DNA of 9,461 nucleotides from Desulfobacteraceae bacterium. GTDB lineage: Bacteria > Desulfobacterota > Desulfobacteria > Desulfobacterales > Desulfobacteraceae. Made by a program: the position numbers and the translations under genes. Shown here piece after piece: positions 1-8,270 of this stretch (the stretch's first letter is position 1; every line of letters begins with the position of its first letter). The stretch is taken from assembly GCA_022712835.1 (NCBI GenBank), contig JAFLJU010000294.1, forward strand, positions 1-9,461, in the 5' to 3' direction. The notes beneath the pieces were generated by a model. The model was not told where the DNA came from. It saw only the letters and a list, made by a program, of their open reading frames with translations, and ran no database searches.

Positions 1-2441
1 ACAAATTTACCGCCGTTGAGGTGCTCGTCCACCACCCTATGGTCTGGATCCCGCATGTAGATGGCCCCACCAGAAGCGAGGGAAAACAGATTGGACCCCG
101 GGTAGACCGTTTCCAGATCCCTCACCTGTCCCTGGTCATCAAACTCAACCCCGTTGAGGATGACAAATCCGCCCCCGTTTAAAGGGTCCCCGGCCATAAA
201 TGATTCAGCCAGATAATCCAGACAGGTCCCGTTGATAATGACCCGGGGGCGGCCCGTGGCATTGATCAGGGGGCGGCCGGCGGCATTGCCCATGATATAG
301 ACCTCTCCCCCCTTTGCCCCGTACATGAAGGTTTGCCCGACATCTCCGTGAACCACCAACTTTCCGTCTTTGATGATTTGTCCCAGCTGATCCTGGGCAT
401 TTCCGTGGACATGGATTTCCATGCCGTCAATGCCAGAAGCCAGGTAATCCCCGGAGGAATCATAGACATCAAACCGAACCTCTTTGGTGCCTGCCCCAAA
501 CCCGCAGCCGGTAAATCGCTGGCCCCGAAATCCGAAACAAAGAAACTGTTTCCACCCTAAGCGGTATGCCTTGTTTTCCAGGCGGGAATCACACAATTCT
601 CCTTCGGGTTCAAAGCCCTTGGCATTGACCACCAGAATTTTTTCACCTTGTTCAGGGGCTCTCAGGTTTTCTCTGGAGTCAAAATCAATATAGGTATAGG
701 GTTGGCCCGCATGCTCCGCGATCCCGGGGGAAGCCATGAAAATACGGGTCAGACTTTCCCGGATGATCTGGAGCAGGGAGCTTCTTTTTTTATTGCCCGT
801 GGGGAAAATCCGGTCATTTAAGTAGGTGAGCAGGTCAATAGCCTTGGCTTTTTTGAGATCATCCTTGGCGGCAAAGGCTTCAATTGTTTCGCAAAGATGA
901 TTTACCTGGACAAAATCCCAGTCGGCCATGCCCTTTGTACAATAGCGTTTAAGTCCGGCAAGATCCCCATTGATGATAAGATCGGATGCAAAAATATCCT
1001 GAAAGTCCGGATCAATTGTTTTACCGGATGTTTTTGACAAATTCGTGGTAATATCATAGTGGAACTGCCCCTCCGGGGTCTTTAGGATCTGGCCAAATTT
1101 GTTTTCTGTAACCAGCCGTTTGGATCCGTCGTCATTTCCCTTAATGGTAAAAGAAAAGGCACCGCCATCGGTGGCGCTGCCGCCCCTGGCATTCCAATAG
1201 GTGTCTGCAATGGGGCAGAACCGTGGGTCTTCCTTGGCAATATTTTCCAGGGTGGCGTCAATGGCCTGTTTTTCGGAACAAACCAGGCCGATCTGCACCT
1301 CGTCTCTTTCCTGGAGGGCAAAGACCTGTGGCCTGAGCATGGCCGTGTCTGTGATGCCAAGCAATTGCAGGATATTCTTATAAGGATCGTTCCGGGCAAT
1401 GATAAAGAACCAGGGCCCGTCCGGGGAACCGTTCATGTGCTGGGACTGGATATACCGGTAGACCTCCTGTTTTTCTTTGGGCAGGCAATCGAAATCATAT
1501 TCCGTTGTGGGGGCCAGGGCTTCAATGATATATTCCATGGGGTACTCAAAAACCCGATTATACAAATCCAAAAGCAGGACCGCGGTTTCCGTATCCGTTA
1601 GAAATTGGGGGAAAATATTATGTTGGTTTAAATATTCACTGACCGCATGGTAGTTGGCAAAATCCCCATTGTGGACCAGGGCTTCGTGCATGCCGGAAAA
1701 GGGGTGGGCACCCCCCGGATGCCAGAGTCTTCCCCTTGTGGGGTAACGCTGATGGGCAATCCAGCCGTGGGCCCTGAAGTCGTCCAGACAATAATACTGG
1801 GTCACCTGTTCAGCATAGCCCACGATTTTAAGGATCATGACATTCCTTGCATGGGACATGACAAAGGCCTGTTTGTCGCCAAGAGACGCATAATAGGTCT
1901 GGTTCAGTCGATTGGAGTTCTGGAAGACAAACTCATCCTCTGCCTTTCTTTTGTCCATTTCATATAAATTATGGAATTGGATGAATTTTTCTAAGACCGC
2001 AGGTTTCACCCGGACAAAATACCGCCATACATCCGGAGGCTTAACTTCTAAGCCGATGCTCGTATAATCCCCAATGGTGGGAATCTTTTCCGATGAGTAG
2101 ATATCAAAATATGGGTGAACATTGGTGGATTCCACCCGGGACTGGGAGTCTGGATCAAGATATGCCACCTGGAGAAGATAATGGTCTTCCAACACATCCT
2201 GGGGAACCGAGAGATCGCTGGCCGAAAGTCCCACGGCAGCTATACCGCCACCCTTTCCGTTGCCCCGGTTATGCATCTGAACCGAGGGTTCGTAAATATG
2301 ACGGCCGGCAATGGGAATATTGGCCATGAAACCGGTTACACCGCACCCGCCTTCTTCATCGCATTTGTTGACCGGGGTTTTTATATGGGGCAGCTTTCCC
2401 CTGGCTGTCAGAATCTTTTGAATCAGTTTCTCTCGTGTCAT
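1..2441 (-). CDS. Class II glutamine amidotransferase fused to GXGXG (GltB C-terminal-like) domain; 3' end off the window
   Basis: I translated this frame by eye and found no stop over 813 codons; it runs off the left edge. Family knowledge: class II (Ntn) amidotransferases hydrolyse glutamine with an N-terminal Cys, and the ammonia is used by a partner synthase. The expected marks are present: CGVTGF with candidate nucleophile Cys33, HQRYPT (R232), HNGD (N258-G259) and TDTE (D283). After an unassigned stretch (about 420-630), a glycine-rich beta-helix (GXGXG) domain begins near residue 640 with GCGFGAG at 645-651. GltB normally has an FMN synthase domain between these two parts; here it is absent and supplied by the two genes upstream. 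Use of Cys33 would require removal of a 32-residue propeptide, as GltB does. The ATG has AGGGAAG about 6 nt upstream. The gene is last of the visible operon, 42 nt after the 539-aa gene. Likely ammonia-generating and scaffold subunit of a glutamate-synthase-like complex. Confidence 0.88.
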   Translation of the reverse strand, partial: MTREKLIQKILTARGKLPHIKTPVNKCDEEGGCGVTGFMANIPIAGRHIYEPSVQMHNRGNGKGGGIAAVGLSASDLSVPQDVLEDHYLLQVAYLDPDSQSRVESTNVHPYFDIYSSEKIPTIGDYTSIGLEVKPPDVWRYFVRVKPAVLEKFIQFHNLYEMDKRKAEDEFVFQNSNRLNQTYYASLGDKQAFVMSHARNVMILKIVGYAEQVTQYYCLDDFRAHGWIAHQRYPTRGRLWHPGGAHPFSGMHEALVHNGDFANYHAVSEYLNQHNIFPQFLTDTETAVLLLDLYNRVFEYPMEYIIEALAPTTEYDFDCLPKEKQEVYRYIQSQHMNGSPDGPWFFIIARNDPYKNILQLLGITDTAMLRPQVFALQERDEVQIGLVCSEKQAIDATLENIAKEDPRFCPIADTYWNARGGSATDGGAFSFTIKGNDDGSKRLVTENKFGQILKTPEGQFHYDITTNLSKTSGKTIDPDFQDIFASDLIINGDLAGLKRYCTKGMADWDFVQVNHLCETIEAFAAKDDLKKAKAIDLLTYLNDRIFPTGNKKRSSLLQIIRESLTRIFMASPGIAEHAGQPYTYIDFDSRENLRAPEQGEKILVVNAKGFEPEGELCDSRLENKAYRLGWKQFLCFGFRGQRFTGCGFGAGTKEVRFDVYDSSGDYLASGIDGMEIHVHGNAQDQLGQIIKDGKLVVHGDVGQTFMYGAKGGEVYIMGNAAGRPLINATGRPRVIINGTCLDYLAESFMAGDPLNGGGFVILNGVEFDDQGQVRDLETVYPGSNLFSLASGGAIYMRDPDHRVVDEHLNGGKF

Positions 2442-2483
2442 GATGAACTTCCCTTTTATAAAACCCTATATTATAGAAGCAGG

Positions 2484-4103
2484 TTATAGAACCATTTTAA
2501 AGTCAGGCGTTGGCTGATAGGTGTCTCTTTCTTCTTGTTCCAGATAATCCAGATGAACCAGAAGATCGGAACGCCCTCTGAGTTCTCGAATGCTGGTCAG
2601 GCCATAGGTTCTTAAGATATCGCACCATTGACTTCTCCAGGCCATGTACATATTGACCAGGCGCTGTTCCACCCAGGCCTCTTCCACCATATAGCCCAGT
2701 TCCGGATCTGTGGTGGCAATTCCCCTGGCACAGCCCCTGCCGCTTTCGCAATTGCCGCACCTTACACATTCCACCGCGACCAGATCGGCTGTGCCGATGA
2801 CGCAGCCGTCCGCCCCCAGGGCAATGGCCTTGGCCACATCCAACCCGTTTCGTATGCCGCCGCTGGCAATGAGGGTGATATTGTCCCTTACCCCTTCGTC
2901 CGTAAGAAATTGGTGGACCTTGGGAATGGCATATTCAATGGGCATGGCAATATTTTTTTTGGCAATGTCAGGTGCTGCGCCTGTTCCGCCGTAGCTGCCG
3001 TCAATATGGATAATATGGGCGCCGGCATAATAAGCCCCCACCGCCACCATATCCACATCCGTGGGGGTGGATACCTTTATGGAGCAAAGCACATCAGGAT
3101 TGATGAGCTTCATCCAGTCCACATGTTTTTTATGGTCTTCAACCGAATAGACGGAATGAAAGGGAAAGGGGGAGAAAAGGGAGCTTCCCACAACGGTTTC
3201 CCGCATTTTAGCAACCGCTTCGGTGACTTTTTCCCCCAAAAGATGTCCACCTAAGCCAGGCTTTGCCCCCTGGGCATATTTAAATTCCATGATCGGGCAG
3301 TTCTGGATGGTCTCTTCCCTCACCCCGAAAAGGCCTGTGGCCACCTGGGTGATGACATGTTCCTTATAGGGAAGAAATTCTTGGGGGTATCCGCCCTCTC
3401 CGGTGCAGGTCAGGGAGTTGAGCCGCTGGGCAGCCCGGGCACGCCCCACAATGATAGACAGGGCCGTGGACCCATAGGACATACCGCCTCCGTAACAGGG
3501 AAGGGAAATCCTCTTTTTGGGGCGTCCGTCACCGGTTTTGTTCAGCTCAATGCTGGTATCTATGGCCTCGTCGGCAAGTCTAATGGCAAGGGTCGGGTCT
3601 GGATGGACAAAGCGCATCTTGTCAAATCCGCCCCCTGAATTGCCAAGGTTGTATTCCAGGGGCACATGGGGAAGATGCCCTGTTTCTGCCATGGCAAAAT
3701 GGCCCAGCAGCATTTCAGGGGTCCACCGATAATCCCCCAGTGTATCCAGCAGGGGATTGATTTTCAGGGTAAGCGCGTTTTCAGGACAGGCGTCTATACA
3801 GAAATGATCGGTCTTTTTGCAATCAAACCCAACACATTTATGCTCAATGGGCCGAAAAGGAAGGCTGTGGTTTTCAGGCTTTAGATGGACCCCGTGGGGG
3901 CAGAGCTTTGCACAATTACCGCAGGCCGTGCAGTTTGAATTTCTTTTAATAATGTACTTACCCATGGTATTGCGAAACCTGGAGGGTGTCTCAATAATTT
4001 CGGGCAGTGTCCGTTCTGTTATTGATGGTTCTGTGATTGACAGGTCTGATAATGATGGTTCCGTTAGTGACGGTTCCGTTAATGACGGTATTACCTGGCT
4101 CAT
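2484..4103 (-). CDS. FMN-binding glutamate synthase central-domain protein with N-terminal 2x[4Fe-4S] ferredoxin (539 aa)
   Basis: Domains in order: a low-complexity tail (about 6-35) of PS(L/I)TE repeats; a ferredoxin domain with C58xxCxxCxxxCP and C90-x4-C-x6-C-x3-C106P, enough cysteines for two [4Fe-4S] clusters; then a TIM-barrel FMN domain like the GltB synthase domain. GltB signatures are present: GEGG (about 235), YAQGAKPGLGG (about 276-286), YGGTGAAP (371-378), ASGGIRNG (413-420) and a cysteine motif C446xxCxxCx5C followed by GIATTDPEL, matching the GltB FeS-cluster loop. In the family this domain adds ammonia to 2-oxoglutarate and reduces the imine using FMN and FeS electrons. It starts 3 nt after the stop of the 476-aa gene, with AGGA about 6-7 nt before ATG, which suggests translational coupling. 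An alternative start at Met47 (3965) would remove the repeat tail but has a poor ribosome site. This is the only copy of the pair that keeps the synthase motifs, so it is probably the catalytic subunit; its true product is unproven. Confidence 0.9.
   Translation of the reverse strand: MSQVIPSLTEPSLTEPSLSDLSITEPSITERTLPEIIETPSRFRNTMGKYIIKRNSNCTACGNCAKLCPHGVHLKPENHSLPFRPIEHKCVGFDCKKTDHFCIDACPENALTLKINPLLDTLGDYRWTPEMLLGHFAMAETGHLPHVPLEYNLGNSGGGFDKMRFVHPDPTLAIRLADEAIDTSIELNKTGDGRPKKRISLPCYGGGMSYGSTALSIIVGRARAAQRLNSLTCTGEGGYPQEFLPYKEHVITQVATGLFGVREETIQNCPIMEFKYAQGAKPGLGGHLLGEKVTEAVAKMRETVVGSSLFSPFPFHSVYSVEDHKKHVDWMKLINPDVLCSIKVSTPTDVDMVAVGAYYAGAHIIHIDGSYGGTGAAPDIAKKNIAMPIEYAIPKVHQFLTDEGVRDNITLIASGGIRNGLDVAKAIALGADGCVIGTADLVAVECVRCGNCESGRGCARGIATTDPELGYMVEEAWVEQRLVNMYMAWRSQWCDILRTYGLTSIRELRGRSDLLVHLDYLEQEERDTYQPTPDFKMVL
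4006..4095. repeat. Six imperfect 15-bp tandem repeats coding for PS(L/I)TE
   Basis: Units on the plus strand include AATGATGGTTCCGTT (4051-4065) and AGTGACGGTTCCGTT (4066-4080), with more diverged copies at 4006-4020, 4021-4035, 4036-4050 and 4081-4095. The 15-bp period keeps the reading frame and encodes a five-residue repeat near the N-terminus of the 539-aa FMN/ferredoxin protein. Slipped-strand change would add or remove whole five-residue units. Confidence 0.85.
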
Positions 4104-4106
4104 AGA

Positions 4107-5537
4107 TTATCCTATATCCAATGATATTTTTCTTTCCCCGAAGATGGGCCCAAAATTCTGTGCTTCCAGATCCTCAAACCACATGGATCGTCCCACTTCC
4201 CCCCGAAGGCGCCTGGCTTCCCGCAGGCCCATGGCGCCCAGCATCTCCAGTATCTGGTTCCGCCAGGCCCCCATGAGATTGACAATCCGCTGGCTGCCAT
4301 AGGCCACATCAATGGATTCCAGTTTTACCGGGCAGGAGAGCCCCTGTTTGCAGCGATGGCAGAGCCTGCATTCCAGGGCAATCAAAATGGGAAGATCAAT
4401 GGCCACCCCGTCGGCGCCGCAGATAATGGCTTTGTTCACATGCTCGGCCATTGAGATCCCACCGGTGGCAAGGATGTTGACCTGTTGCCGTATACCGTCA
4501 TCCACCAGGGCCAGATGGATATCCCTGAGCATATCCTTGATAAATCTGGGAGCGGGAAAATCAAACTCCCGGCCATTGGTATCGGCATAGACATGGAGGG
4601 TGTCCACCCCGGCCCTTGCCAGGGAAACGGCTGTTCGTGCATAATCCAGATCGGCAGATAGGGGCAGACCGCAACTGATAAACAATCCTTCTTTCATGCC
4701 CCGAAGCGTTGCTATCTCTTGTTCAAGCCCTTTTTCAATACCGGGCTCATAGACGATTTCCACCATGTCGCAACCGGAAATGAGCCGGGGATATTTCGGG
4801 TAAGTTTCTCTTGTTACCAGGGGAATGATGGTGGAAGAAAACACCATGAGGCCATCCAATACATCAGCGGCCGGCATAAACATCTTGGTACCAATGGTTT
4901 TGGCTGCCCCAAGCATGGCAATAATGACCTCTTTGCTTAAAATACCGAAATCCGGCTGGGAAAAAAGAATGGGCAGAGGCACTTCCAGAATGGGCATTTT
5001 TTCAATGGCCAGGGAACCGTCTTTCTTAAAGGAAAGCTGAGCGGGTCTGCGGGAAAGCTCAATACAGGTATTGATATACTCCCGGCCATGGATGCCGTCC
5101 CGGGTGGGCCGGACAATTTCCGACATGTCCGTCCACATGGAATCAAAGCCTTTTCCCACAAAGGGTCCCCTGTAACCAGCCCCGGACACGGGAATGCTCC
5201 CGGTATGGGCCTGGTACCAGGTGCGGTTCAGTACATCCGGGGTCCAGTATTCATCGCCTATTTCCCGGTATTCAGGATTGATCACCCTGGAAAAGATTCC
5301 TTTGGTGCATTCCTGGATACACCTGAAGCAGGAGTTGCAGGTATACAGATACTCCGGGTCTTCCATGTGGCTCATGTGCATATAATTATCCTTGAAGACG
5401 TTATAAACACATTTATTTTTGACACATTCCTTGCAGGAGCCGGCACAATTTTCCCTGAATTCGATGGTGGCATATTTGCCCACGGGATAAAACCTTGGAG
5501 GGGCCTGTTGGGTATGTATATTGTATTTTGCAGGCAT
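4107..5537 (-). CDS. Divergent FMN/glutamate-synthase-like protein with N-terminal 2x[4Fe-4S] domain (476 aa)
   Basis: A paralogue of the neighbouring 539-aa protein. The N-terminus carries C31xxxCxxCx4C43 and C67xxCxxCxxxC77, enough for two FeS clusters. The barrel follows, with an FMN-phosphate-type loop ATGGIS (about 357-362) and then C390xxCxxCx5C402, the same spacing as in the neighbour. The C-terminal helices also match (IVNLMGAWRNQILEML here, LVNMYMAWRSQWCDIL there). In contrast, the GEGG, QGAKPGxGG and GGTGAxP motifs are not recognisable: the position of the last reads HVYADTNGREF. It therefore probably does not carry out ordinary glutamate synthesis; a structural or electron-carrying role in a heteromeric complex is my inference. 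It begins 5 nt after the metF stop, with GGGGA inside the metF end as likely ribosome site, and is 3 nt from the next gene. It could instead be a dihydropyrimidine/dihydroorotate-dehydrogenase-like barrel, but the shared cysteine loop favours GltB ancestry. Confidence 0.82.
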   Translation of the reverse strand: MPAKYNIHTQQAPPRFYPVGKYATIEFRENCAGSCKECVKNKCVYNVFKDNYMHMSHMEDPEYLYTCNSCFRCIQECTKGIFSRVINPEYREIGDEYWTPDVLNRTWYQAHTGSIPVSGAGYRGPFVGKGFDSMWTDMSEIVRPTRDGIHGREYINTCIELSRRPAQLSFKKDGSLAIEKMPILEVPLPILFSQPDFGILSKEVIIAMLGAAKTIGTKMFMPAADVLDGLMVFSSTIIPLVTRETYPKYPRLISGCDMVEIVYEPGIEKGLEQEIATLRGMKEGLFISCGLPLSADLDYARTAVSLARAGVDTLHVYADTNGREFDFPAPRFIKDMLRDIHLALVDDGIRQQVNILATGGISMAEHVNKAIICGADGVAIDLPILIALECRLCHRCKQGLSCPVKLESIDVAYGSQRIVNLMGAWRNQILEMLGAMGLREARRLRGEVGRSMWFEDLEAQNFGPIFGERKISLDIG

Positions 5538-5542
5538 GGCGA

Positions 5543-6472
5543 TTATTCCCCAGCTCTTTTAAGATCGGTACGTTTGAGACCGGCTTGTTCCACAATAGTC
5601 CCGACGATTTCTTCCCATTCAATGGCCATGAGATGAATCCCTGCAACGCCTTTCAGGCCTTTGAGTTCTTCAATGGTTTCCAGACAGATCTGAACCCCTT
5701 CCTGGGCAGCTTTTTCCTTGGGAACCTGTTCCATCCGAAAGATGATCTTATCGGGAATATCCATTCCCGCCACTTTCTTTTTCATATACCGGGCCATGCC
5801 AGCTGATCGAAGGGGGGTTACCCCGCCCAGGATGTACACCTTGTCTGTGAGACCCTGGTCATTGGCCCTTTTGATCCATTCCTTGAATCTGTCCATATTG
5901 TAAATGCATTGGGTCTGGATAAAATCTGCGCCTGCCTCGATTTTTTTGGCAAGACGGAGCACCCGGTATTCAAAGGGGTCGGCAAAGGGATTGGCCGCGG
6001 CACCAATGAACATTTCAGGGGCCTCATCAAGCGCATACCCGCTCATGTCACGGCCGGTCTCCCGCATGTCTCTGACGGTCCGGATGAGGTTGGTTGAATC
6101 GATATCAAAGACATTGCGTGCGTCGGGCTGGCTGCCGAATTTCTGATGATCCCCGGAAAGGCAAAGAATGTTTCGAATCCCAAGGGAATAGGCCCCCATG
6201 ATATCTGACTGGATAGCAATGCGGTTCCTGTCCCTGACCACCATCTGCATCACCGGCTCCATACCGGCCACAACCAGATGAGCGGAAGCCGCAACAGAAG
6301 ACATCCTGACAATGGCGGTCTGGTTGTCCGTCACATTGACGGCATCGGCATGGCCGTTCAGCAATTTGATTTTTTCTGTGATAACGCCTTTGTTGGATCC
6401 CCGGGGGGGACCGCATTCTGCGGTCACCACAAAATCTTTGTTCATAAGTTTTTTCTGCAAGTGGCTGATCAT
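5543..6472 (-). CDS. metF: 5,10-methylenetetrahydrofolate reductase, MetF (309 aa)
   Basis: MetF is an FAD TIM barrel that interconverts methylene- and methyl-tetrahydrofolate in the methyl branch of the Wood-Ljungdahl pathway; in a complete-oxidising sulfate reducer it may run in the oxidative direction. Seen here: TAECGPPRG with E19 (equivalent of the catalytic Glu28 of E. coli), NVTDNQ (46-51), VRDRN (79-83) for FAD contact, GDH (107-109) with D108 at the place of E. coli Asp120, QTQCIYN and GGVTPL. Length about 309 fits the family. The ATG overlaps the metV stop by 4 nt (ATGA), typical of coupled subunits; Met10 is a weaker alternative start. There is no NAD(P)H-binding extension, consistent with the MetF-MetV type that takes electrons through a partner protein. 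The following glutamate-synthase-like gene is 5 nt away, so all are very probably on one mRNA. Confidence 0.96.
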   Translation of the reverse strand: MISHLQKKLMNKDFVVTAECGPPRGSNKGVITEKIKLLNGHADAVNVTDNQTAIVRMSSVAASAHLVVAGMEPVMQMVVRDRNRIAIQSDIMGAYSLGIRNILCLSGDHQKFGSQPDARNVFDIDSTNLIRTVRDMRETGRDMSGYALDEAPEMFIGAAANPFADPFEYRVLRLAKKIEAGADFIQTQCIYNMDRFKEWIKRANDQGLTDKVYILGGVTPLRSAGMARYMKKKVAGMDIPDKIIFRMEQVPKEKAAQEGVQICLETIEELKGLKGVAGIHLMAIEWEEIVGTIVEQAGLKRTDLKRAGE

Positions 6473-7137
6473 ACGATGTGGTCCTCCCGGATAAGTTTTC
6501 TGGGGCCGCCGGACAGACTGGTCGCCCAGTTTTTAGGGGGAATATATGTTTTTAAGTTATCCAGCTGGCCAAGGAGGGTCAGCCGGTCAATGATTAAATG
6601 CCATGCACAGTCCGTGTTTTCATCAATCTCGCATTTGCCTTGCTGGGACCCGCCGCAGGGTCCGTTCAAAAGTTTTTTGGCGCACCGGGTTAAGGGGCAG
6701 ATGCCGCCAAAGGCAGCAAGGCCGCAATTGCCGCACCCGGAACATTCTTCCGTAAAAACCCCGGGGCTTTCCTGGATGCCGATAAAGGTGGTATTTACCC
6801 CGGGCAATACCGGTGATTTTACGAATCGTTTGGCCAGGGCCTGGACACCTGCACCGCAGGCCAGGGAGAGAATGGCATCATTCTGGCCAGTTTTCGCGGC
6901 GGCCTCCTGGATAAATTCGTTTTCACACTGGCGTTCAACGGTGAGTTCATCTATCGCGAGTTCCTGGCCTGCCTTTTTAAAATAAAGCCGCAGGGCCGAG
7001 GCCAATACCGCGACTTCATCCTCACCACCGGCAAAACATGTTTTAACGCAGGTACCGCACCCCAAAATCAGAACGCGCTCATAGGGGTCAACAAGGTCTG
7101 CAATCTCTTGAATAGGTTTTTGACTGCCTGTAATCAT
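6469..7137 (-). CDS. metV: MetV, zinc/FeS partner of methylenetetrahydrofolate reductase (222 aa)
   Basis: MetV is the cysteine-rich partner of MetF in acetogens and other Wood-Ljungdahl bacteria (methylene-tetrahydrofolate reductase C-terminal family). The N-terminal part has GCGTCVKTC (C27, C30, C34). The C-terminal part has the family signature CSGCGNCGLAAFGGICP (C132, C135, C138, C147), then C152 and LLNGPCGGSQQGKCE (C161, C169), plus C177. In studied MetVF enzymes this subunit binds metal and is needed for activity, probably by passing electrons to the MetF flavin. Ribosome site GGAG lies about 9 nt before ATG; the gene starts 28 nt after mvhD and overlaps metF by 4 nt. The metV-metF order with an MvhD gene in front is a known arrangement, but the usual HdrA/B/C genes are not seen in the window. 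Confidence 0.95.
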   Translation of the reverse strand: MITGSQKPIQEIADLVDPYERVLILGCGTCVKTCFAGGEDEVAVLASALRLYFKKAGQELAIDELTVERQCENEFIQEAAAKTGQNDAILSLACGAGVQALAKRFVKSPVLPGVNTTFIGIQESPGVFTEECSGCGNCGLAAFGGICPLTRCAKKLLNGPCGGSQQGKCEIDENTDCAWHLIIDRLTLLGQLDNLKTYIPPKNWATSLSGGPRKLIREDHIV

Positions 7138-7165
7138 AAGCGTTTACTCCATTAAGATGTTGGGT

Positions 7166-7573
7166 TCAATTGTAAAGGTTTACAGCGGGATTCAGTCCAA
7201 TGGTGTCTAAGTTTTCCAGGGTAGTTTGGATGATTTGCCTTATTTCATCCGATTCTCCGGCCTTTGTATTGAAGATGGCAAGCCTGTCACCATCCATGCC
7301 GATATCATCTAAAATCCTCTTCACATAATCCACCCGCTTTTTCGCCCGGATGCTTCCTTGGACATACCGGCAGGCGTCCTCCTTGCAGACAAGGACGATA
7401 ACCGCATCGGCCCCGGCTTCAAAGGCCCTTAATAAGAAGATATCCCTTGTCATGGAAGAACAGGCCATCTTAACGATGCTAGGGTCACACCCCTCAAAAA
7501 GCTCAGGGGTTTCACGGAAAGAATTGAGACAATGAAACAAGGTGATTTTTGGTTTTTGCGCTGTATCTGACAT
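7166..7573 (-). CDS. mvhD: MvhD-like hydrogenase/heterodisulfide reductase FeS electron-transfer subunit (135 aa)
   Basis: Similar in layout to MvhD, the small [2Fe-2S] protein that links hydrogenase or other dehydrogenases to HdrA: a central CSSMTRDIFLLRAFEAGADAV block (C38), then VCKEDACRYVQG (C63, C68) in the place of the usual GCHxGDCHY, followed by a helix with K/R and the NTKAGESDEI ending. It is divergent: the first motif reads HCLNSF with a single cysteine (C15) where MvhD usually has a CxxC pair; C29 might substitute. Start chosen at 7573 because GGGAG lies 7 nt upstream and homology begins there; the frame is open further to a TTG at 7714, but that extension would cross the inverted repeat and hairpin. 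First gene of the mvhD-metV-metF unit. Likely role is to bring electrons to or from MetVF; the partner (HdrA or the glutamate-synthase-like complex) is unknown. Confidence 0.82.
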   Translation of the reverse strand: MSDTAQKPKITLFHCLNSFRETPELFEGCDPSIVKMACSSMTRDIFLLRAFEAGADAVIVLVCKEDACRYVQGSIRAKKRVDYVKRILDDIGMDGDRLAIFNTKAGESDEIRQIIQTTLENLDTIGLNPAVNLYN

Positions 7574-7580
7574 TTGTCGT

Positions 7581-7585
7581 CTCCC
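7581..7585 (-). promoter_or_regulatory. Ribosome binding site that decides the mvhD start
   Basis: GGGAG, 7 nt before the ATG at 7573, directly after the T-rich tract of the upstream hairpin. It supports the short 135-aa form of MvhD over the longer open frame. Confidence 0.7.
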
Positions 7586-7633
7586 AAAAACAAAAAAGGC
7601 GTTTTGCCTATAATTATAGGAAAAAACGCCTTT
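7586..7633 (-). terminator. Two-tier hairpin plus T-tract before mvhD (terminator or attenuator)
   Basis: On the minus strand an 11-bp outer stem (AAAGGCGTTTT at 7633-7623 with AAAACGCCTTT at 7605-7595) encloses a perfect 14-nt palindrome CCTATAATTATAGG (7620-7607), which folds as an inner stem. After the outer stem the minus strand reads TTT G TTTTT (7594-7586), the form of an intrinsic terminator. It ends at the mvhD ribosome site. It may stop readthrough from the Ni superoxide dismutase gene, or, if the operon promoter lies upstream, act as an attenuator in the leader. The palindrome also contains TATAAT, so a promoter -10 here, without a good -35, is another reading. Confidence 0.7.
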
Positions 7634-7689
7634 GTTTTCTTTAAAGTTCCATGTCGGACACGCCATTGTATCCGGCAATTCAATTAGGT

Positions 7690-7716
7690 TATTGACAAAT
7701 ATGTAATTTGTCAATA
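7690..7716. promoter_or_regulatory. Perfect inverted repeat (operator-like) overlapping a TTGACA box
   Basis: TATTGACAAAT (7690-7700) and ATTTGTCAATA (7706-7716) are exact reverse complements around a 5-nt spacer ATGTA. On the minus strand TTGACA (7715-7710) is a perfect -35 box, and 17 nt later comes TAACCT, a poor -10. A strong -35 within a long dyad and a weak -10 fits a regulated promoter for the mvhD operon. The core TTGAC/GTCAA resembles the half-sites of CRP/FNR-family proteins, but it is not a clean FNR or HcpR consensus, so I do not name a regulator. Confidence 0.55.
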
Positions 7717-7753
7717 CTTTTTTTAACCCTGTTTAAATGTTTTGAAAGTCCCC

Positions 7754-8218
7754 CTATTTCTTGTGCTCAGGATAGTAGGAAGACAAGGCCTCAATGCTTT
7801 CTTTCAGACTTTTTACAACAGTTATATCGGCATTCTGCTTGGCTTTCATAGCGGCAAGAATAACAAAATGGTGTCTTTTTAAACGTTCTGCATAATCCTG
7901 TTGATCCGGCTTGACCCGCTGGGTCAAAAAATAATCGCTGATACTGGTAATGATCTTCTGGGCATGTACTTCCTTGTTCATCACCCATCGCACCAATTGG
8001 TTTTGAGACTGGGCATCAGACTTGCCCGCAAGCTCCATAATCAAGCGGATTGACTTTTCAATGGTAGCGGCATCTTCACGCATGGATTGAACCCTGGCGA
8101 AATCATCATAGATCCCGCAGGGGATTTGACAATGGGCCTGCAAGAGTTGCGGTAACCCTAGGATAAAGGTTGCCAGCACAAAACAAATCAACAGAACACT
8201 TTTTTTAAAATCTTTCAT
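7754..8218 (-). CDS. sodN: Nickel superoxide dismutase with Sec signal peptide (154 aa, mature 126 aa)
   Basis: NiSOD dismutates superoxide using Ni bound by the N-terminal hook H1-C2-x-x-P5-C6-G7-x-Y9 of the mature protein. Here HCQIPCGIY starts right after a signal-peptide-like segment: KDFKK, a hydrophobic run of about 17 residues, then QLLQA, giving predicted cleavage A28|H29. The mature 126 residues show the NiSOD helical pattern, including NKEVHA...SDYF (compare KEQRAE...SDYF of Streptomyces NiSOD as I recall it) and end KK. Gln replaces Asp3, and by alignment a Gln may replace the hydrogen-bonding Glu17. Start chosen at 8218 because AAGGAG is 9 nt upstream; an in-frame ATG at 8242 has no good ribosome site. 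No SodX maturation protease is seen nearby, so signal peptidase may itself free the Ni-binding histidine. Probably periplasmic. Stands 86 nt after the peroxiredoxin-like gene. Confidence 0.9.
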   Translation of the reverse strand: MKDFKKSVLLICFVLATFILGLPQLLQAHCQIPCGIYDDFARVQSMREDAATIEKSIRLIMELAGKSDAQSQNQLVRWVMNKEVHAQKIITSISDYFLTQRVKPDQQDYAERLKRHHFVILAAMKAKQNADITVVKSLKESIEALSSYYPEHKK

Positions 8219-8227
8219 AATTGCGTT

Positions 8228-8232
8228 CTCCT
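8228..8232 (-). promoter_or_regulatory. Ribosome binding site that decides the sodN start
   Basis: AGGAG within AAGGAGAA, 9 nt before the ATG at 8218. The earlier in-frame ATG at 8242 lies upstream of this site and has no such motif, so the shorter protein with a compact signal peptide is preferred. Confidence 0.7.
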
Positions 8233-8270
8233 TAAGATTCATGGTTTGATCCGGTCTAAATTTTTTTTGA

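What the first reader, a model, noticed from the sequence alone, without database searches (positions are those of the whole stretch)
1..7573. Glutamate-synthase-like three-gene set locked to mvhD-metV-metF
Six genes in one direction with gaps of -4 to 42 nt join MetVF and an MvhD-like protein to three proteins that together carry all GltB parts plus four extra FeS-cluster motifs. GltD, the usual NADPH-oxidising partner, is missing, as is HdrA, the usual partner of MvhD with MetVF. Two hypotheses follow. First, the FMN/FeS complex replaces HdrABC as redox partner of MetVF. Second, it makes or uses an amino compound linked to C1-tetrahydrofolate, as N-methylglutamate synthase (MgsABC) does in methylotrophs. 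Neither is shown by the sequence.
Basis: partly seen in the sequence, partly recalled or inferred. Interest (0 to 1): 0.8.

Follow-up and report, generated by a model that had tools for sequence, protein, structure and literature searches.

The report
Glutamate-making enzyme paired with folate reductase
In many sulfate-reducing bacteria the genes for an unusual glutamate-making enzyme sit in one operon, behind an RNA switch, with a folate (one-carbon) reductase, which suggests that these microbes may pay for nitrogen assimilation with electrons from one-carbon metabolism instead of the usual NADPH.

Summary
Six minus-strand genes, mvhD-metV-metF-476-539-813 (the last cut by the window end), have gaps of -4 to 42 nt. 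Among the 80 best relatives, 55 of 55 loci with enough upstream sequence have mvhD, 49 have metV and metF upstream, and each testable locus has 539 (71/71) and 813 (43/43). In a separate phylum draw 34 of 118 genomes carry the 476 gene; 23 of those 34 have metV and/or metF in the cluster.

The trio is best read as a glutamine-dependent glutamate synthase: amidotransferase and FMN-barrel motifs are conserved, while the 476-aa barrel has lost them and looks like an Fe-S relay. Neighbours include type I glnA, carAB and purF; 11 of 30 genomes show no other recognised glutamate synthase. ANTAR switches mostly control nitrogen genes.

In place of GltD stand interchangeable partners: MvhD with MetVF, MvhD with HdrA(BC), or a GlcD-like flavoprotein, fused to the trio in L121. 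I infer that MetVF-MvhD feeds methyl-THF electrons into glutamate synthesis. Electron coupling is unproven.

The parts
7690..7716 (.). perfect 11-bp inverted repeat (TATTGACAAAT / ATTTGTCAATA, 5-nt spacer) upstream of the leader; possible operator or promoter element
   Evidence: the repeat finder; function and conservation not tested
7653..7676 (-). leader hairpin P1, hexaloop AATGGC (A1, G4) closed by C-G
   Evidence: covariation (rows pre-selected for pairing); fold
7622..7639 (-). leader hairpin P2, hexaloop AAAGGC, overlapping the 5' arm of the terminator
7592..7630 (-). intrinsic terminator (GGCGTTTT...AAAACGCC plus T-run) that ends 18 nt before the mvhD ATG
   Evidence: sequence; inverted repeat; leader fold z -3.51
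7166..7573 (-). mvhD-like (FlpD) protein, 135 aa; four Cys kept in the operon family
   Evidence: Pfam PF02662 81.3 bits; Cys in 95-96 of 96
6469..7137 (-). metV, 222 aa, Fe-S subunit of MetVF-type methylene-THF reductase
   Evidence: PF12225 122.9 bits; Cys columns
5543..6472 (-). metF, 309 aa, methylene-THF reductase
   Evidence: PF02219 141.1 bits; E19 and D108 kept in at least 90% of 85 operon MetFs (that these are the catalytic pair is recalled)
4107..5537 (-). 476-aa subunit: two N-terminal 4-Cys motifs, glutamate-synthase-like barrel without the 2-oxoglutarate/FMN motifs, barrel 4-Cys cluster kept; proposed electron relay
   Evidence: PF01645 59.6 bits; model and fold search
2484..4103 (-). 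539-aa catalytic FMN subunit of glutamate synthase with two N-terminal 4-Cys motifs and barrel cluster Cys
   Evidence: PF01645 290.4 bits; alignment to GltB 1ea0; fold search
1..2441 (-). class II glutamine amidotransferase (Cys33) fused to GXGXG domain; C-terminus cut by window end
   Evidence: PF13522 and PF01493; conserved Cys33, HNGD and others in 66 sequences

Best explanation
The six genes are one nitrogen-regulated operon for a glutamate synthase whose GltD is replaced by a MetVF-MvhD module. The 813-aa protein releases ammonia from glutamine and holds the GXGXG domain; the 539-aa protein carries the FMN and the 2-oxoglutarate site; the 476-aa protein is a dead barrel with Fe-S clusters that receives electrons. 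Most likely flow (inferred): methyl-THF is oxidised to methylene-THF at the MetF flavin, then electrons pass MetV Fe-S, MvhD, the 476-aa Fe-S clusters, the 539-aa Fe-S clusters and FMN, to 2-iminoglutarate, giving glutamate. Shown by sequence: gene order and its conservation, conserved catalytic motifs, nitrogen-assimilation neighbours in relatives, ANTAR-type leader, exchangeable input partners. Inferred: physical complex, direction and donor.
For: Linkage: mvhD 55/55, metV 50/55, metF 51/55 loci with at least 2.5 kb upstream; 539 in 71/71 and 813 in 43/43 testable loci of the 80 best relatives; 23 of 34 trio genomes of a 118-genome phylum draw have metV and/or metF in the cluster. Active sites: Cys33 amidotransferase and HNGD motifs at 97% or more in 66 sequences; QGAKPG-GG, TGEGG, GGTGAAP kept in 539, lost in 476. 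Nitrogen context in relatives: glnA, carA, carB, purF; no other recognised glutamate synthase in 11 of 30 genomes, two of which also lack a detected ELFV glutamate dehydrogenase (G015, G024). ANTAR-type leader before mvhD in 21 of 59 loci plus the window, 4 hits elsewhere, Markov controls 1, 0, 0, 0, 1; model hits also before mvhD in L015, L021, L030 and before glnA in L035 and L051; GAF-ANTAR gene nearby in relatives. Input is modular: hdrC-B-A or hdrA joins in L076, L077, L079, L112-L114; a GlcD-like FAD/Fe-S gene takes the mvhD place in L123, L125, L126 (only L123 typed); one 2533-aa chain in L121 holds GlcD-like, Fe-S, both barrels, amidotransferase and GXGXG; 476 and 539 share one frame in L064, L087, L088, L090, L094, L101. 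Operon MetFs of the window's kin lie apart from the hdrA-linked MetFs of the same genomes. Methylene-/methyl-THF E0' is -200 mV, and tagged MvhD pulled down HdrA, HdrB and MetF in Sporomusa, though no tight complex was purified (passages of PMC9430772); glutamate formation needs about -120 to -140 mV (recalled).
Against: No biochemistry. metVF is absent from the flanks seen in 7 of 34 trio genomes (4 mvhD only, 3 GlcD-like), and 4 more are cut by contig ends. G020, a one-contig chromosome MAG, keeps metV but has the operon-type metF elsewhere. 6 of 34 trio genomes have no detected CdhC, three of them with metVF in the cluster. Fer4_20 (GltD-type) matches exist in all 15 genomes tested, so a GltD-like partner in trans is possible. 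19 of 30 genomes have another glutamate synthase by my classing. The window itself has no glnA, carAB or purF.
Confidence: 0.52

Rival explanations
1. Co-regulation without electron coupling: the trio is a ferredoxin- (or GltD-in-trans-) dependent glutamate synthase, and MetVF-MvhD shares the operon because C1 units and nitrogen are both needed for biosynthesis.
For: metVF is missing in some trio loci; GltD-type Fer4_20 matches are in all 15 genomes tested; metF lies with other C1 biosynthesis genes in Methanosarcinaceae and ANME (passages of PMC9012536).
Against: MvhD, an electron carrier with no known C1 role, is the more constant neighbour (55/55). Its place is taken by another redox flavoprotein in three genomes, and such a protein is fused to the trio in L121. 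The six-gene core has no other C1 gene.
Confidence: 0.22
2. Bifurcation/confurcation: an HdrA-containing partner (from elsewhere in the genome, or in the cluster as in L079 and L112) docks through MvhD, and the exergonic arm to glutamate drives a second reduction.
For: hdrA or hdrCBA plus a second mvhD and metV(F) in one cluster in L079, L112, L113; hdrA also in L076, L077, L114.
Against: No HdrA or NAD-binding subunit in the window; my hdrA HMM, built from the L079 protein alone, found none near the trio in the other loci printed (L064-L130).
Confidence: 0.12
3. One reading: the trio is mainly a redox partner that lets MetVF reduce or oxidise C1 units for energy metabolism, glutamate synthesis being secondary.
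For: MetVF with MvhD is known to sit with Hdr subunits (passages of PMC9430772, PMC5736913); CdhC is commoner in trio genomes (28/34 vs 49/84, p 0.018 uncorrected for kinship).
Against: The genomes examined keep separate hdrA-mvhD-metV-metF clusters that could do that job (six genomes sampled). Trio motifs, glnA/carAB/purF context and the ANTAR-type leader point to nitrogen.
Confidence: 0.08
4. One reading: the trio makes another amino compound such as N-methylglutamate from a C1-linked amine.
For: Shared domain set (amidotransferase, GXGXG, FMN) with MgsABC (recalled).
Against: 5/5 tested glnA neighbours are type I, below the type III cut-off; no other recognised glutamate synthase in 11/30 genomes; amidotransferase and GXGXG are one chain here.
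Confidence: 0.05

Closest known systems
NADPH- or ferredoxin-dependent glutamate synthase (GltB/GltD, Fd-GltS)
   Same: Class II amidotransferase Cys, FMN barrel motifs, GXGXG and the three cluster Cys of GltB align (which GltB Cys bind the cluster is recalled); best fold matches of the 539 model are GltS structures 6s6s, 1ea0, 1ofd
   Different: Split in three chains, amidotransferase fused to GXGXG, a second degenerate barrel subunit, four extra N-terminal 4-Cys motifs, a fourth barrel Cys, no GltD in the cluster
Separate-subunit (archaeal-type) glutamate synthase with GltD, as in L007 916-5985
   Same: Fe-S-bearing FMN subunit; by my classing found in 12 of 30 of these genomes as a paralogue, within about 10 kb in L006, L007, L031
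   Different: In L007 its GXGXG is fused to GltD; its FMN subunit is about 28-29% identical to 539
Hdr-type methylene-THF reductase (HdrABC-MvhD-MetVF of Moorella/Sporomusa; PMC9430772 passages)
   Same: mvhD, metV and metF together
   Different: Here the glutamate-synthase trio takes the place of HdrABC; MetFs of the window's kin lie apart from hdrA-linked ones
N-methylglutamate synthase MgsABC
   Same: Domain inventory (recalled)
   Different: Domain arrangement and glnA type differ; no MgsC sequence was compared
ANTAR-target antiterminator leaders (EutV/NasR type; PMC3369931 abstract and passages)
   Same: Two hexaloop hairpins with A1 and G4 (the A1/G4 rule is recalled), second overlapping a terminator; GAF-ANTAR gene in relatives; nitrogen targets
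   Different: This operon was not named in the passages read; the paper reports glutamate synthase genes of Desulfotomaculum reducens as targets

Membership tests
Glutamate synthase (GltS) | Class II amidotransferase with catalytic Cys and HNGD-type motif | tested here: met
   Cys33, N258, G259, D260 at 97% or more in 66 sequences; GATase_6 just at cut-off in the window, just under it in L007
Glutamate synthase (GltS) | FMN/2-oxoglutarate barrel motifs and cluster Cys | tested here: met
   539 aligns to GltB 857-1170 at E about 3e-52, with motifs and three cluster Cys
Glutamate synthase (GltS) | GXGXG domain | tested here: met
   PF01493 46.1 bits, cut-off 32.5
Glutamate synthase (GltS) | GltD encoded with it (NADPH type) | tested here: not met
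   No GltD in window or in the conserved core of relatives; GltD-type Fer4_20 matches elsewhere in the 15 genomes tested. So it is not filed as the NADPH type
Glutamate synthase (GltS) | Makes two glutamates from glutamine and 2-oxoglutarate | not testable with these tools
   Needs assay
N-methylglutamate synthase MgsABC | Three chains: amidotransferase, GXGXG and FMN separate (recalled) | tested here: not met
   Amidotransferase and GXGXG in one chain
N-methylglutamate synthase MgsABC | Type III/GMA-synthetase-like glnA neighbour (recalled) | tested here: not met
   5 of 5 tested neighbours are type I GlnA; the window itself has no glnA
N-methylglutamate synthase MgsABC | Sequence kinship to MgsC | not tested
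   No MgsC sequence on hand
Hdr-type MTHFR (HdrABC-MvhD-MetVF) | MetV, MetF and MvhD together | tested here: met
Hdr-type MTHFR (HdrABC-MvhD-MetVF) | HdrA in the gene set | tested here: not met
   Absent from window; present in some other lineages
ANTAR-target RNA | Two hexaloop hairpins with A1 and G4 | tested here: met
ANTAR-target RNA | Second hairpin overlaps an intrinsic terminator | tested here: met
ANTAR-target RNA | ANTAR protein in the genome | tested here: inconclusive
   No genome held for the window; a gene of one cluster lies in 9 of the 80 relatives' loci, two members of it typed GAF-ANTAR by Pfam
ANTAR-target RNA | Binding and antitermination | not testable with these tools
   Needs assay; Rfam gave no match above a gathering score for window 7400-8000

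The most novel reading that the evidence does not exclude
A methyl-tetrahydrofolate-driven glutamate synthase: nitrogen assimilation wired straight into the Wood-Ljungdahl methyl branch through MetVF-MvhD. It would be one member of a modular glutamate-synthase family in which a degenerate Fe-S barrel subunit is a universal socket for different electron inputs (MetVF-MvhD, MvhD-Hdr, GlcD-like flavoprotein).
Probability: 0.48. Interest if true: 0.85.

Novelty: new variant of a known kind. Interest (0 to 1): 0.72.

Why it matters
The well-studied glutamate synthases draw on NADPH, NADH or ferredoxin (recalled), and an F420-dependent type is named in passages of PMC9012536. A donor at -200 mV would be cheaper for organisms at the energetic limit and would couple C1 flux to nitrogen assimilation directly. 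It would give a role to one of the many metF paralogues of these bacteria (2 to 10 MTHFR matches in each of 30 genomes), which matters when their energy budgets are inferred from gene counts. Desulfospira joergensenii DSM 10085 (L018/G007) carries the set and its record names a strain, so the idea is testable.

Tried and rejected
Whole-genome search of the window's own assembly: none held. NADPH-type assignment rejected: no GltD in the cluster. AsnB label for the gene after carB in L051 rejected: it is PurF; my HMM named asnB is that protein. A strict definition of the leader motif with a required terminator arm found it in 4 of the 80 loci (5 hits) plus the window, with 0 in three dinucleotide-shuffled replicates; I relaxed it afterwards, where the Markov controls gave 1, 0, 0, 0, 1. 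One relaxed-motif hit also lies on the window plus strand near 1166, inside a gene and probably chance. The promoter/terminator scan did not list the terminator before mvhD, probably because its loop is longer than that scan allows. Rfam: nothing over a gathering score. The P1 covariation test is weaker than its numbers: its 20 rows were picked by a filter that already demands four or more paired positions next to the loop, and the outer pairs 1, 2 and 4 are unpaired in 14, 15 and 10 of 20 rows; the real helix is about five to six pairs. Of 16 R1 hits in 8 genomes, 7 lie before operons whose leaders built the model, so only the other 9 are independent. I first took the G026:C96 hit for one before liv/urt-type permeases; the next ORF is an unknown 146-aa one, the permeases lie about 1 kb on. 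AlphaFold models are middling (mean pLDDT 72.6 and 75.0, with several Fe-S loops poor), so fold matches are used only as support. A role tied strictly to Wood-Ljungdahl organisms was not borne out: 6 of 34 trio genomes lack a CdhC match. The operon MetFs are not one clade: 6 label changes against 23.3 in shuffles, at least 4 forced by starred branches, with long branches present; the window's own MetF was not a row of that tree, the paralogues were taken from six genomes only, and the script labelled L112 and L113 as paralogues although their metVF is in the cluster downstream. The 80 loci are the best of 463 and so biased towards close relatives; the 118-genome draw (G007 is in both) is the fairer sample. 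In 4 of the 34 genomes (G032, G111, G073, G033) the contig ends before metVF could be judged.
Full report
What is there. The window's minus strand carries mvhD, metV, metF, a 476-aa gene, a 539-aa gene and a truncated amidotransferase/GXGXG gene with gaps of 28, -4, 5, 3 and 42 nt. Upstream on the same strand lie a Ni-SOD-like gene, a SelL-related peroxiredoxin-like gene and a PEMT/ICMT-like gene. No whole genome is held for the window. The closest protein for the 476 gene is 93% identical, from a JGI-sourced contig; the closest genome contig is a Desulfobacula MAG at 83%.

Conservation. A scan of genome contigs with the 476 family gave 463 relatives, of which the best 80 were kept. Of the 80, 55 have at least 2.5 kb upstream: mvhD 55/55, metV 50/55, metF 51/55, both metV and metF upstream 49/55, any metV/metF in the locus 54/55; the 539 gene follows in 71/71 and the 813 gene in 43/43 testable loci. 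This sample is biased to close relatives. A draw of 118 genomes of the same phylum found full-length 476 homologues (476 bits or more) in 34. For these 34: metV and metF upstream in 18, metF only in 1, metV only in 2, metVF downstream after hdrA in 2, mvhD without metVF in 8 (4 of them cut by contig ends), and a GlcD-like gene instead of mvhD in 3. Many of the 34 loci have only 1.5 kb of flank, so how often mvhD is present was not counted there. In the phylum of L022 (Dehalococcoidia) 4 of 121 genomes have the family at E 1e-40 or better. By record title, distant loci also come from Latescibacterota, Armatimonadetes and Hydrogenedentota.

What the trio is. The amidotransferase Cys33 and its companion motifs are kept at 97% or more in 66 sequences. 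The 539 protein aligns with GltB of Azospirillum at E about 3e-52 and keeps the barrel motifs and cluster Cys; the 476 protein has lost the TGEGG, QGAKPG-GG and GGTGA motifs but keeps two N-terminal 4-Cys motifs and, in the window lineage, the barrel 4-Cys cluster. Glutamate synthase is the best PDB match of both models, at moderate model confidence. Neighbours in relatives are glutamine synthetase (type I by NCBIfam in 5 of 5 tested), carA, carB and purF. In 30 genomes taken from the 80 loci, 19 have another recognised glutamate synthase and 11 do not (my classing by score and frame length: 8 with a full-length GltB, 12 with the separate-subunit type, 3 with a class at about 342-363 bits, overlapping; weaker PF01645 matches not counted). 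One of the 11, G020, is a one-contig chromosome MAG (CP070768.1). An ELFV glutamate dehydrogenase match is absent from 3 of 30 genomes (G015, G016, G024) and below cut-off in G014; G015 and G024 are among the 11. Completeness of the genomes is not given.

Electron input. GltD is not in these clusters. MvhD is the most constant neighbour in the 80-locus sample, MetVF the usual one with it. In L076, L077 and L079 hdrC-hdrB-hdrA follows the trio; in L112 and L113 hdrA-mvhD-metV-metF follows it, and L114 ends in hdrA. In L123, L125 and L126 a gene of 619-630 aa precedes the 476 gene; the L123 protein has FAD_binding_4, FAD-oxidase_C and Fer4_8 and is GlcD-like, the other two were judged by sequence only. 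In L121 one 2533-aa frame contains those domains, both barrels, amidotransferase and GXGXG; L122 has a frame of 2531 aa with the same trio order, its N-terminus not typed. In L064, L087, L088, L090, L094 and L101 the 476 and 539 parts lie in one frame. A dead barrel with Fe-S clusters beside exchangeable redox proteins is what an electron socket would look like (inference). A tree of 110 MetFs (84 labelled operon, 26 labelled paralogue; the window's own not included) puts 57 operon MetFs of Desulfobacterota and Dehalococcoidia, the window's nearest kin among them, in a 100/100 clade with one other row, the metF of G020, whose cluster lacks one; hdrA-linked MetFs of the six genomes sampled fall elsewhere. 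Distant operon MetFs fall in other places, so the pairing may have arisen or been replaced more than once; long branches make this uncertain.

Energetics. Methylene-THF/methyl-THF E0' is -200 mV (passage of PMC9430772); 2-oxoglutarate plus ammonium to glutamate is near -120 to -140 mV (recalled). Electron flow from methyl-THF to glutamate is therefore downhill under standard conditions; the opposite direction is not. Direction and donor remain inference. The ACS marker CdhC is found in 28 of 34 trio genomes and 49 of 84 others (p 0.018, not corrected for kinship), so the link to the Wood-Ljungdahl pathway is moderate; G065, G099 and G109 have metVF in the cluster and no detected CdhC.

Before mvhD the minus strand has two hairpins with loops AATGGC and AAAGGC, the second sharing its 3' arm with an intrinsic terminator that ends 18 nt before the ATG (fold z -3.51). 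No room is left for a promoter between terminator and ATG, so transcription should have to read through (inference). The same layout with different stems lies before mvhD in 21 of 59 loci with at least 300 nt upstream; 4 hits lie elsewhere (one of them, in L015, before the 550-aa gene below) in about 2.1 Mb of both strands (one search gives the bases); first-order Markov controls gave 1, 0, 0, 0, 1. P1 shows changes on both sides in 7 of 9 tested pairs, score 0.448 against 0.178 in shuffles, 0 of 500, but its rows were pre-selected for pairing near the loop. The layout matches the ANTAR substrate, which in the 2012 PLoS Genetics paper lies mainly before nitrogen genes, glutamate synthase included (PMC3369931, abstract and passages). 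Nine of the 80 loci carry a gene of one cluster near the operon, two members typed as GAF-ANTAR. A model built from 19 leaders finds 16 sites in 8 genomes: 7 before this operon (in the model by construction), 5 before a roughly 550-aa protein with weak Glu_synthase similarity (G005 checked as an ORF in L181, G020 by its place in L051, the others by distance to the match), 1 at the glnA start of G020, 1 before an aminotransferase IV and alanine racemase pair, 1 before an unknown 146-aa ORF with liv/urt-type permeases about 1 kb on, 1 before an unknown 245-aa ORF. In 13 chosen sources the model also finds leaders that did not build it, before mvhD in L015, L021 and L030 and before glnA in L035.

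Literature. Ten full-text searches were run; the first nine looked for this cluster or its parts, the tenth for ANTAR. In the listings, and in the passages I saw of PMC2702500, PMC5736913, PMC9012536, PMC10553843 and PMC9430772, I saw no description of metVF-mvhD beside a glutamate synthase. Supplements and closed papers were not seen, so this is no proof of absence.

Verdict. Observation confirmed; interpretation partly supported; the most likely reading is a nitrogen-controlled glutamate synthase with MetVF-MvhD as electron input. Membership in the NADPH type, the MgsABC type and the Hdr-type reductase each fails a tested feature, so I file it as a new variant of glutamate synthase.

Noticed in passing
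window 7592-7676 minus: ANTAR-type double-hairpin leader with overlapping terminator before mvhD; several relatives carry a GAF-ANTAR gene nearby.
   Followed up: yes
L121 1969-9567 minus; L122 315-7907 plus: Single 2531-2533-aa frames with the trio in order; the L121 protein starts with GlcD-like FAD and Fe-S domains followed by both barrels, amidotransferase and GXGXG.
   Followed up: partly
L051 2122-3771, L181 1066-2724, L015 1418-3067 and similar: A roughly 550-aa protein with weak Glu_synthase similarity, present in many of the 30 genomes and in several of them behind the same ANTAR-type leader; function unknown.
   Followed up: partly
window 7690-7716: Perfect 11-bp inverted repeat TATTGACAAAT/ATTTGTCAATA with 5-nt spacer upstream of the leader, possible operator.
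   Followed up: no
window 3999-4088: 15-nt tandem repeats give the window's 539-aa protein an N-terminal TEPS-like extension not seen in the relatives printed.
   Followed up: no
window 7754-8242: Ni-SOD-like gene (129 bits to Pfam Sod_Ni, but below the NCBIfam sodN cut-off) directly upstream; not in the conserved operon core.
   Followed up: no
G007, G017, G020 (L142-L155): These genomes carry several MTHFR paralogues (2 to 10 in each of 30 genomes), several in hdrA-mvhD-metV-metF clusters, plus a short MetF-like gene before hdrA in some loci.
   Followed up: partly
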